From an uncultured Hyphomicrobiales bacterium (GTDB lineage Bacteria > Pseudomonadota > Alphaproteobacteria > Rhizobiales > Xanthobacteraceae), in contig CAITJJ010000281.1 in the NCBI GenBank assembly GCA_903892675.1, forward strand, positions 1 through 55,468: DNA of 55,468 bases. The letters are read 5' to 3'. A program made the position numbers and the translations under genes. Positions 54,066-55,468 of the stretch are shown here, piece by piece (within the stretch, counting starts at the first letter, position 1; each line of letters starts with the position of its first letter). Under the pieces are notes generated by a model. The model ran no database searches. It was not told the DNA's origin and saw only the letters and a program-made list of their open reading frames with translations.

Positions 54066-54677
54066 TCAAATCGACTTCAACCGATCGAGACCCTTGTTCA
54101 GCAAAAGCGCGACGTTCGGCGCAGGAGGAATTGACAGGACGGCCTGGTGTCCGCGCTCGGACATTTTGCTCCAGGTCTTGGCGAGGATGTCAGCCAATCG
54201 TGTATCGTCGTCGGCGTATTTGCCGGCGAACGCCGCCAATTCATATTTAACGAAGACGATGCAGATGACGTCTTCCAGCGTCTGCACTTCGTCGTCGTCC
54301 TTCAGCCGCTCCTTGCGCACGATGGAAGCGACACGCGCAATCGTCGCCTGATCGTAAGAGAGATCGGCGAGAATGGCCGAGAGCCGCGCCGCATGATGAT
54401 CGCGCAGAGCGAGCCGCCAGCGGTGATAGCCCGGCCGGTCCATCGGATACTGTGTGCGGGGAATGATCCAGCGCTCGATATGTTGGCCGCGCACCGCGAT
54501 CCGGAGCGGCTCGAAAGCGTCCGGTGCGAACGTTGCCAATTCCGCCGACATCCGCATCCCGTAGATCAGATTGGCCGGGCGCGGCGCCCCATCCACCTCC
54601 ACGCTCTTCGGATCGGCGCTATTGGCCGCGTCAATCGCAGCGAAGGCTTTGAGAAGTCGTTGCGTTTCCGAAGTCAT
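54066..54677 (-). CDS. DUF4202 domain-containing protein
   Basis: A 203-aa cytoplasmic protein. I prefer ATG 54677 (MTSETQRLL); the track begins at a GTG three codons earlier. The DUF4202 family is recognisable from AVRGQHIERWIIPRTQYPMDRPGYHRWR, with His and Trp residues set as in HD-like metal sites (LRDHHAARL). The function is unknown, but the family is often adjacent to assimilatory nitrate/nitrite reductase genes, and here it is divergent from nirB. Confidence 0.88.
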   Translation of the reverse strand: MTSETQRLLKAFAAIDAANSADPKSVEVDGAPRPANLIYGMRMSAELATFAPDAFEPLRIAVRGQHIERWIIPRTQYPMDRPGYHRWRLALRDHHAARLSAILADLSYDQATIARVASIVRKERLKDDDEVQTLEDVICIVFVKYELAAFAGKYADDDTRLADILAKTWSKMSERGHQAVLSIPPAPNVALLLNKGLDRLKSI

Positions 54678-54879
54678 CGTTGCCACACAGTAAGAGGATG
54701 AGACACCGCTGATATAACAAATGGCACGACCAGATATGCATAGATTTTAGGCAACATGACCCCAAGGCGAGCAATGGTCACGAACTCGTTCACCGTCACC
54801 GGCCCGAGCAGGCGCCGGAGATGAACCAAGAATGCAGTAGACATAAGCTCTTTTGCAGATCACACCCGCTCTCGCGTTC

Positions 54880-54896
54880 TGGCATAAGGGTTGCAT
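54880..54896 (+). promoter_or_regulatory. Sigma-54 (RpoN) promoter for nirB
   Basis: The sequence tggcataagggttgcat matches TGGCAC-N5-TTGCA with the invariant GG (54881-54882) and GC (54893-54894) separated by exactly 10 bases. A start about 12 bases later falls near 54906, directly at the first leader hairpin. Sigma-54 control through NtrC is expected for nitrogen assimilation genes. I did not find a clear NtrC dyad upstream. Confidence 0.8.
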
Positions 54897-54907
54897 GCTT
54901 TTTCGTC

Positions 54908-54954
54908 GGTCAGTGCTGACCATTCTTCCGACCCATGCGCCCAATGCCGGGCGC
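54908..54954 (+). ncRNA. Tandem-hairpin ANTAR-type antitermination leader (NasT-responsive) of nirB
   Basis: Two hairpins follow the predicted transcription start. P1 is ggtc-AGTGCT-gacc (54908-54921) and P2 is gcgccc-AATGCC-gggcgc (54937-54954), separated by 15 bases. Both hexaloops have A at position 1 and G at position 4, the known recognition pattern of ANTAR-domain proteins such as NasT/NasR. These bind to stop a downstream terminator forming when nitrate or nitrite is present. P1 has only 4 GC-rich pairs (5-6 if the loop closes). Confidence 0.65.
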
Positions 54955-54964
54955 CGAGGACACA

Positions 54965-54994
54965 AACTGTTCGTCGCGCTAGCGCGGCACAGTT
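54965..54994 (+). terminator. Leader hairpin following the ANTAR motif
   Basis: An outer stem aactgt/acagtt encloses a perfect inner palindrome cgcgctagcgcg. It lies 10 bases after P2, the place for the terminator that ANTAR binding would counter. No T-run follows, so assignment as terminator is tentative. Confidence 0.45.
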
Positions 54995-55030
54995 ACGTGC
55001 ACCCAGGTGATCGGAACCCACACATTCGAA

Positions 55031-55066
55031 GCGTGATGCGGGGCTATCGCTAGCCCTCATTCACGC
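55031..55066 (+). terminator. Second strong leader hairpin before nirB
   Basis: The arms gcgtgatgcggggcta and tagccctcattcacgc pair over 16 positions with a few internal mismatches and a tcgc loop. It lies 74 bases before the nirB start. It could be the regulated terminator or a stability element. No T-tract is present. Confidence 0.45.
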
Positions 55067-55139
55067 TGTCGCGGAGTTGCGGAGGCAATCGCCTTCGTCG
55101 GCGTTCTTCGCATTGAGCACGCGCACAGCTGAGGGCGGA

Positions 55140-55415
55140 ATGAAGCAGAAGCTAGTGATCGTCGGCAATGGCATGGCGCCGGGCCGCGCGCTCGACCTGT
55201 TATTCGAGACAGCGCCCGAGGCCTACGAGGTCACGATCTTCAACGCCGAGCCGCGGGTGAACTATGACCGCATCATGCTGTCACCGGTCCTGTCGGGCGA
55301 AAAGTCGTTCGAGGAAATCGTCATTCACGGTGACGGCTGGTACATCAAGCACGGCGTCACGCTCTACAAAGGCGCCAAGGTGACCGGTATCGGAGCTATG
55401 GTCGAAAGTTGGTGA
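55140..55415 (+). pseudogene. nirB: Nitrite reductase large subunit NirB, N-terminal fragment with premature end
   Basis: From ATG 55140, behind gagggcgga, it reads MKQKLVIVGNGMAPGRALDLL..., followed by NYDRIMLSPVLSG and GDGWYIKHGVTLYKGAKVTGI. This is the FAD-binding start of NirB, the NADH-dependent assimilatory nitrite reductase, normally more than 800 aa. After the TGI segment, where NirB continues with an Asp-led strand, the sequence turns into GAMVESW and stops at residue 91. The break at about 55392 looks like an insertion boundary or an assembly junction. Everything before it is well conserved, so the lesion is recent or artificial. Confidence 0.85.
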
Positions 55416-55468
55416 CGGGGTAGATCAGGAAGGCGGCATATCGTGGGGGTAGTTGAAGCCTCCACTTC
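55393..55468. mobile_element. Possible end of an insertion sequence interrupting nirB (cut by window edge)
   Basis: From about gagctatggtcgaaagttgg on, the sequence no longer resembles nirB in any frame. The minus strand reads an open tail ending PPRYAAFLIYPVTNFRP then stop, which could be the C terminus of a transposase near its terminal repeat. Only 76 bases are available, so family and terminal repeat cannot be established. Confidence 0.35.

What the first reader, a model, noticed from the sequence alone, without database searches (positions are those of the whole stretch)
54880..55139. nirB leader combining a sigma-54 promoter with a two-hairpin ANTAR antitermination RNA
The -24/-12 element has exact GG-N10-GC spacing and predicts a start one or two bases before hairpin P1. 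P1 and P2 both have hexaloops with A1 and G4 (AGTGCT, AATGCC), and two further hairpins follow before the ATG. The sequence shows the elements. Established knowledge is that NasT/NasR-type ANTAR proteins bind such pairs in nitrate/nitrite assimilation leaders. The inference is a double gate: nitrogen limitation by NtrC/sigma-54, then nitrate/nitrite by NasT.
Basis: partly seen in the sequence, partly recalled or inferred. Interest (0 to 1): 0.75.

Follow-up and report, generated by a model that had tools for sequence, protein, structure and literature searches.

The report
NasT-type RNA switch before nirB
In front of a nitrite reductase gene sits a nitrogen-starvation promoter whose RNA begins with the two small hairpins that nitrate-sensing NasT proteins bind, an arrangement known from Pseudomonas, but the transcription terminator that such hairpins normally control cannot be found here.

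Summary
TGGCATAAGGGTTGCA (54880-54895) is the only full-consensus sigma-54 site in the window, and P1/P2 carry every known ANTAR feature: hexaloops with A1/G4, C:G closing pairs and a 15-nt linker. Shuffled leaders match this 17 times in 20,000, and never with P1 near the start. One same-genus genome (G548) keeps the sigma-54 site, two NtrC-like sites 140-170 bp upstream, all stems and A1/G4; only free loop positions changed. The genome encodes nasT-nasS, ntrC and rpoN. nirB leaders across the family, and in Reyranella, share the layout (P1 near +1). The NtrC/NasT double gate is well supported, and is known for Pseudomonas nirBD.

Two corrections. First, 'antitermination' is not shown: no U-tract terminator follows (1 of 34 nirB leaders has one, against at least 17 of 30 nasS-linked leaders). 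In a Bradyrhizobiaceae class a covarying helix competes with P1, and the ribosome site is usually paired. Translational or Rho-dependent output is possible but unproved for the window. Second, nirB is cut at codon 84 by an IS256-family end at the contig edge, and the rest of NirB was not found in the draft genome; here the leader may be a relic.

The parts
54710..54726 (-). NtrC-like site TGCCATTTGTTATATCA, about 170 bp before the sigma-54 motif
   Evidence: 2 mismatches to YGCMNNNNTTNNTRGCA; identical in G548
54737..54753 (+). NtrC-like site TGCATAGATTTTAGGCA, 143 bp before the sigma-54 motif
   Evidence: 1 mismatch to the motif given in PMC5424462; kept in G548 inside a conserved block followed by diverged sequence
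54880..54895 (+). sigma-54 -24/-12 element TGGCATAAGGGTTGCA, GG-N10-GC; +1 predicted near 54906
   Evidence: only full match in the window, expected 0.10; identical in G548; the sigma-54-start to P1-start distance is 26-29 nt in the sampled nirB leaders of the same layout
54908..54921 (+). P1: 4-bp stem GGTC/GACC, hexaloop AGTGCT (A1, G4), C:G closing pair
   Evidence: loop is AACGCC in G548, stem unchanged
54937..54954 (+). P2: 6-bp stem GCGCCC/GGGCGC, hexaloop AATGCC (A1, G4), C:G closing pair; linker to P1 is 15 nt
   Evidence: loop is AATGTG in G548; best window hit of the nas-leader model, 15.9 bits but E = 0.22
54965..54994 (+). H3 hairpin, no U-tract after it
   Evidence: predicted fold; a different hairpin stands at this place in G548
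55030..55067 (+). H4 hairpin, no U-tract after it
   Evidence: predicted fold; one compensatory pair change against G548
55090..55137 (+). possible ribosome-site helix 55090-55097 with 55130-55137 (8 bp, includes GAGGG of the Shine-Dalgarno site)
   Evidence: pairable in both window and G548 but reached in 96 of 1000 column shuffles: suggestive only
55131..55135 (+). Shine-Dalgarno site GAGGG
   Evidence: sequence; 4 nt before the ATG
55140..55391 (+). nirB 5' fragment, 84 codons
   Evidence: 99% identical to an intact nirB in G548; NirB model TIGR02374 match
55392..55468 (+). end of an IS256-family insertion sequence cutting nirB; contig edge
   Evidence: 77 bp identical to the end of contig C290; that end matches the start of IS256-family elements on Bradyrhizobium plasmids
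54066..54686 (-). divergent DUF4202 gene sharing the intergenic region
   Evidence: PF13875, 222.5 bits; conserved beside nirB in G548

Best explanation
This is a NasT-target ANTAR leader on a sigma-54 transcript of nirB. Under nitrogen limitation NtrC, bound near 54710-54753, drives the sigma-54 promoter and RNA starts near 54906 (inferred). The RNA opens with P1 and P2, which NasT would bind once nitrate or nitrite releases it from NasS (inferred from NasT biology). NasT binding then allows nirB expression after initiation. Intrinsic antitermination is unlikely as the output because no terminator was found. The likelier outputs are ribosome-site access or Rho-dependent termination; which of them is not resolved. 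Shown here: the elements, their conservation, and the cognate regulators in the genome. Not shown: NasT binding, the transcript start, or any regulation. In this strain the nirB behind it is broken by an IS256-family element in the assembly.
For: Sigma-54 match and its uniqueness. P1/P2 descriptor p about 1e-3, and 0 of 20,000 near the start. Conservation in G548 of NtrC-like sites, sigma-54 element, stems and A1/G4. Same layout upstream of nirB in other genera of the family (L111, L112, L114-L116, L122; L117-L120 keep P1 but have G1 in P2) and in Reyranella-type genomes. nasT (ANTAR 76 bits plus receiver domain) next to nasS, nrtABC and nitrite reductase genes on contig C253. ntrC 732 bits and rpoN present. 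The contig is not misbinned: 82.8% nucleotide identity with G548 across nirB and the neighbouring DUF4202 gene.
Against: No intrinsic terminator. Independent covariance models do not find the element significantly. No Rfam match. Only one close relative in 44 genomes of the genus shares this nirB, so covariation for the window's own leader rests on two sequences. nirB is truncated, so the element may no longer regulate anything here.
Confidence: 0.75

Rival explanations
1. Translational ANTAR switch: without NasT the leader folds so that the nirB ribosome site is paired; NasT holding P1/P2 shifts the fold and frees it.
For: nirB leaders lack U-tract terminators (1 of 34) while nasS-linked leaders have them (17 of 30 by a strict scan). 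In the Bradyrhizobiaceae class (10 sequences) a 10-bp helix that uses the 3' half of P1 covaries at two pairs; 6 double-change cells, 0 of 500 shuffles, slid controls lower. In that class the Shine-Dalgarno bases are mostly paired, and a segment just after P2 pairs with the 5' arm of that hairpin with some covariation.
Against: For the window itself the 8-bp ribosome-site helix is reached in 9.6% of column shuffles, and folding with P1/P2 held does not free the site (mean unpaired 0.40 free against 0.30 held). In the Bradyrhizobium-like class (L198-L217) the site is not clearly occluded.
Confidence: 0.3
2. Classical antitermination, with a terminator missed here because it lacks a clean U-tract or depends on Rho.
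For: ANTAR control of nitrate assimilation is by antitermination in the systems studied (PMC7496416; review PMC12830290). The genome's own nrtA leader on C253 has the canonical P2-overlapping terminator.
Against: No terminator-like site by two scans. No strongly C-rich, G-poor stretch; C/G overall 1.06, best 60-nt window 1.64.
Confidence: 0.35
3. The leader is a relic: nirB was destroyed by the IS256-family insertion and its control region is no longer under selection in this strain. This is compatible with the best explanation for the ancestral function.
For: nirB stops at codon 84 in an IS256-family end; no remaining siroheme part of NirB in the assembly; a separate nitrite/sulphite reductase gene exists on C253.
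Against: The assembly is 85.5% complete in 404 contigs and the junction is at a contig edge, so an intact copy in part of the population is possible. P1/P2 are undamaged, so any loss is recent.
Confidence: 0.35
4. Chance: unrelated small GC-rich hairpins that happen to lie after a sigma-54 promoter.
For: GC-rich DNA folds easily; covariance models give no significant score.
Against: Descriptor p about 1e-3, substitution pattern against G548, and the same layout in independent nirB leaders.
Confidence: 0.07

Closest known systems
Pseudomonas nirBD leader NalA (NtrC/sigma-54 plus NasT; Romeo et al. 2012, reviewed in PMC12830290)
   Same: Same gene, same promoter type, same pair of gates (nitrogen limitation, nitrate/nitrite).
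   Different: NalA blocks elongation by a terminator that NasT relieves; no terminator was found in the window leader.
Klebsiella oxytoca nasF leader (Ntr plus NasR; PMC7496416, PMC5424462)
   Same: Two hairpins, hexaloops with A1/G4, C:G closing pair; Ntr control plus nitrate.
   Different: NasR senses nitrate itself; an intrinsic terminator is controlled; the downstream gene is nasF.
Canonical nasTS-linked leader of the same genome (nrtA on contig C253)
   Same: Two A1/G4 hexaloop hairpins (ggtccAATGACgggcc, cagcAACGCCgctg) after a sigma-54-like motif; same NasT.
   Different: 2-nt linker, P1 about 58 nt after the promoter motif, P2 overlapping a GCGGC-TTTTTTT terminator; the window has a 15-nt linker, P1 at about +2 and no terminator.
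Actinobacterial ANTAR RNAs acting on translation (PMC8164766)
   Same: Dual stem-loop with A1/G4 and 2-25 nt linker; translation-level control.
   Different: There the motif itself covers the ribosome site and binding represses; here the motif lies about 180-230 nt upstream of the start codon and NasT is expected to activate.

Membership tests
ANTAR-target dual-hairpin RNA | two stem-loops with hexanucleotide loops, A at 1 and G at 4 | tested here: met
   AGTGCT and AATGCC; A1 and G4 kept in G548
ANTAR-target dual-hairpin RNA | C:G pair closing each loop and linker of 2-25 nt | tested here: met
   both loops closed by C:G, linker 15 nt
ANTAR-target dual-hairpin RNA | cognate ANTAR protein in the genome | tested here: met
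   single ANTAR protein, nasT on C253 beside nasS
ANTAR-target dual-hairpin RNA | recovered by a covariance model of other family members | tested here: inconclusive
   R2 15.9 bits, E 0.22, P2 only; R1 9 bits, E 2; no relevant Rfam match
ANTAR-target dual-hairpin RNA | binds NasT | not testable with these tools
   needs a gel shift or similar
ANTAR transcription attenuator (antitermination leader) | intrinsic terminator overlapping P2 | tested here: not met
   none in the leader; present in the nrtA leader of the same genome
NtrC/sigma-54-dependent promoter | GG-N10-GC element | tested here: met
   54880-54895, full consensus, unique in the window, identical in G548
NtrC/sigma-54-dependent promoter | upstream NtrC sites | tested here: met
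   two NtrC-like sites, 1 and 2 mismatches, both conserved in G548; motif match alone is weak
NtrC/sigma-54-dependent promoter | rpoN and ntrC in the genome | tested here: met
NtrC/sigma-54-dependent promoter | mapped transcript start near 54906 | not testable with these tools
   no transcript data
ANTAR leader acting on translation | ribosome site occluded in the unbound fold and freed when P1/P2 form | tested here: inconclusive
   mostly paired in the Bradyrhizobiaceae class; not significant and not freed in the window

The most novel reading that the evidence does not exclude
Alphaproteobacterial nirB leaders form a class of NasT-responsive RNAs without an intrinsic terminator, in which P1 starts at the transcript's first bases and competes with a downstream helix, so that NasT switches ribosome access (activation of translation) rather than termination.
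Probability: 0.25. Interest if true: 0.6.

Novelty: new variant of a known kind. Interest (0 to 1): 0.4.

Why it matters
It carries the NtrC plus NasT logic, known from Klebsiella and Pseudomonas, to a family of Alphaproteobacteria, and defines a nirB leader layout with P1 at about +2 and no terminator. If the output is translation, NasT would be an activator of ribosome access, which the papers read here do not describe; that is directly testable in Bradyrhizobium-type strains. One paper read here states that the regulation of the nitrate assimilation genes narB and nirB in Sinorhizobium meliloti is not known (PMC6616083).

Tried and rejected
Rfam: nothing relevant.

Covariance models: R1 (Bradyrhizobiaceae nirB class) and R2 (nas leaders) do not recover the window significantly; they are tuned to their own linkers and sequences. 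R2 over the whole genome finds significantly only the nrtA leader, which was in its training set.

Pairing of the P2 5' arm and loop with the ribosome-site region looked attractive by eye in several classes. The duplex test against shuffled and swapped partners was mixed (own mean -35.0, cross mean -31.2 kcal/mol, many individual leaders unremarkable), and the G548 fold does not predict it. I dropped it as a general claim.

Window ribosome-site helix and P1 5'-arm alternative helix: 9.6% and 15.6% of column shuffles reach them, so suggestive only.

Upstream in-frame extension of nirB (from 55077): open in both genomes, but the changes are mostly amino-acid changing while NirB itself is 99% identical; read as non-coding by eye, not tested formally.

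Misbinning: rejected, G548 of the same genus has the same neighbourhood.

Rho site: no clear C-rich, G-poor stretch, which is not a real test.

Full report
What is there. The window is a complete contig (C281) of a draft genome of 3.6 Mb in 404 contigs, 85.5% complete. Near its right end a sigma-54 element TGGCATAAGGGTTGCA stands at 54880-54895 with exact GG-N10-GC spacing. It is the only full-consensus site in 55 kb, with 0.10 expected. The predicted start is near 54906. P1 (54908-54921, loop AGTGCT) and P2 (54937-54954, loop AATGCC) follow, then H3 (54965-54994), H4 (55030-55067), a GAGGG ribosome site (55131-55135) and the nirB ATG at 55140.

Is it more than chance. NasR SELEX work gives the recognition rule: a pair of stem-loops, C:G closing pair, A1 and G4 in a hexaloop (PMC7496416); a later survey gives a linker of 2-25 nt (PMC8164766). 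A pair that meets all of this with stems of at least 4 bp is found in 17 of 20,000 dinucleotide shuffles of the leader. With P1 in the first 20 nt it is found in none. The whole window holds three such pairs on both strands.

Comparison with a close relative. Of 44 genomes of the genus, only G548 has the same nirB, 99% identical in the first 84 residues, with an intact long reading frame. Nucleotide identity over 54072-55391 is 82.8%, including the divergent DUF4202 gene, so the contig is not misbinned. Within the intergenic region a block at 54702-54760 is conserved, the next 110 bp or so are diverged, and the sigma-54 element is identical. The conserved block holds two NtrC-like sites with 1 and 2 mismatches. 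P1 and P2 differ at five positions, all in loops and none at A1, G4 or in stems (p = 2.8e-4). H4 has one compensatory change.

Cognate regulators. The genome has one ANTAR protein. It is NasT, with a receiver domain and an ANTAR domain, followed by nasS, nrtABC, a NirB-like FAD protein and a nitrite/sulphite reductase on contig C253. rpoN and ntrC are present. The C253 nrtA gene has the canonical leader: a sigma-54-like motif, ggtccAATGACgggcc, 2 nt, cagcAACGCCgctg, and a terminator ending GCGGC-TTTTTTT that overlaps P2.

Wider comparison. nirB leaders of other genera in the family (L111, L112, L114-L116, L122) have a sigma-54 element with P1 26-29 nt after its first base, a linker of about 18-21 nt and P2. 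L117-L120 and the Bradyrhizobium-like L198-L217 keep an A1/G4 P1 but have G at position 1 of the P2 loop. Reyranella-type leaders (L028, L031) have the layout too. Loci from the genome search on the minus strand are not reoriented; early readings of them were corrected.

Output step. A U-tract terminator is absent in the window. It was found in 1 of 34 nirB leaders, against 17 of 30 regions downstream of nasS, by the same strict scan. In the Bradyrhizobiaceae class an exhaustive helix search ranks first a 10-bp helix between the 3' half of P1 and a segment about 90 nt downstream. It covaries at two pairs, with 6 double-change cells against 0 of 500 shuffles, and slid controls are lower; related rows inflate such counts. 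The Shine-Dalgarno bases of that class are mostly paired, and a segment after P2 can pair with the other arm of that hairpin. This fits a translational switch. For the window itself the evidence is weak: an 8-bp conserved helix covers the ribosome site, but 9.6% of column shuffles reach it, and holding P1/P2 does not free the site in the fold. I therefore leave the output open between translation and an unseen, perhaps Rho-dependent, termination.

Negative formal tests. Rfam has no relevant match. Models R1 and R2, built without the window, score it at 9 and 15.9 bits with E of 2 and 0.22. These models are specialised, but the result means membership is not established by a covariance model.

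State of the gene. The nirB frame ends at 55415. From 55392 the sequence is identical over 77 bp to the end of contig C290, which matches the start of IS256-family elements on Bradyrhizobium plasmids. The rest of NirB is not in the assembly. Either nirB is interrupted by an insertion sequence in this strain, or the assembly joins a minority path.

What is known. NtrC/sigma-54 plus NasT control of nirBD is described in Pseudomonas (PMC12830290, citing Romeo et al. 2012), Ntr plus NasR control of nasF in Klebsiella (PMC5424462, PMC7496416), and NasT-nasA leader binding in Paracoccus (PMC3795266). The double gate is therefore a known kind. New here are the nirB leader layout in Alphaproteobacteria and the missing terminator. 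A library of open-access papers was searched; subscription literature was not.

Noticed in passing
window 55392-55468: Contig end is an IS256-family element end that interrupts nirB after codon 84; the same 77 bp lies near the end of contig C290, a length suggesting an assembly k-mer overlap at a repeat.
   Followed up: partly
window 54066-54686 (-): Divergent DUF4202 gene lies 24-67 bp from the two NtrC-like sites and is conserved beside nirB in G548, so the sites may serve both genes.
   Followed up: no
L026 (G000:C283) around 680-740: A second nrtABC set has a full-consensus sigma-54 element (TTGGCACCGAAGTTGCT) only some 60 nt before its likely ATG, leaving no room for an ANTAR leader.
   Followed up: no
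L235 4588-10193 (G548): Operon downstream of intact nirB: a formate/nitrite transporter and a PP2C phosphatase-protein kinase fusion.
   Followed up: partly
L198-L217 (Bradyrhizobium-like nirB leaders): P2 hairpins keep G4 but have G instead of A at loop position 1 (GCGGAT, GCCGAT, GCGGCT), while P1 keeps A1/G4.
   Followed up: partly
L028, L031 (Reyranella-type nirB leaders): Three consecutive hexaloop hairpins with A1/G4; the last two match the canonical nas model at 34-37 bits although not used to build it.
   Followed up: partly
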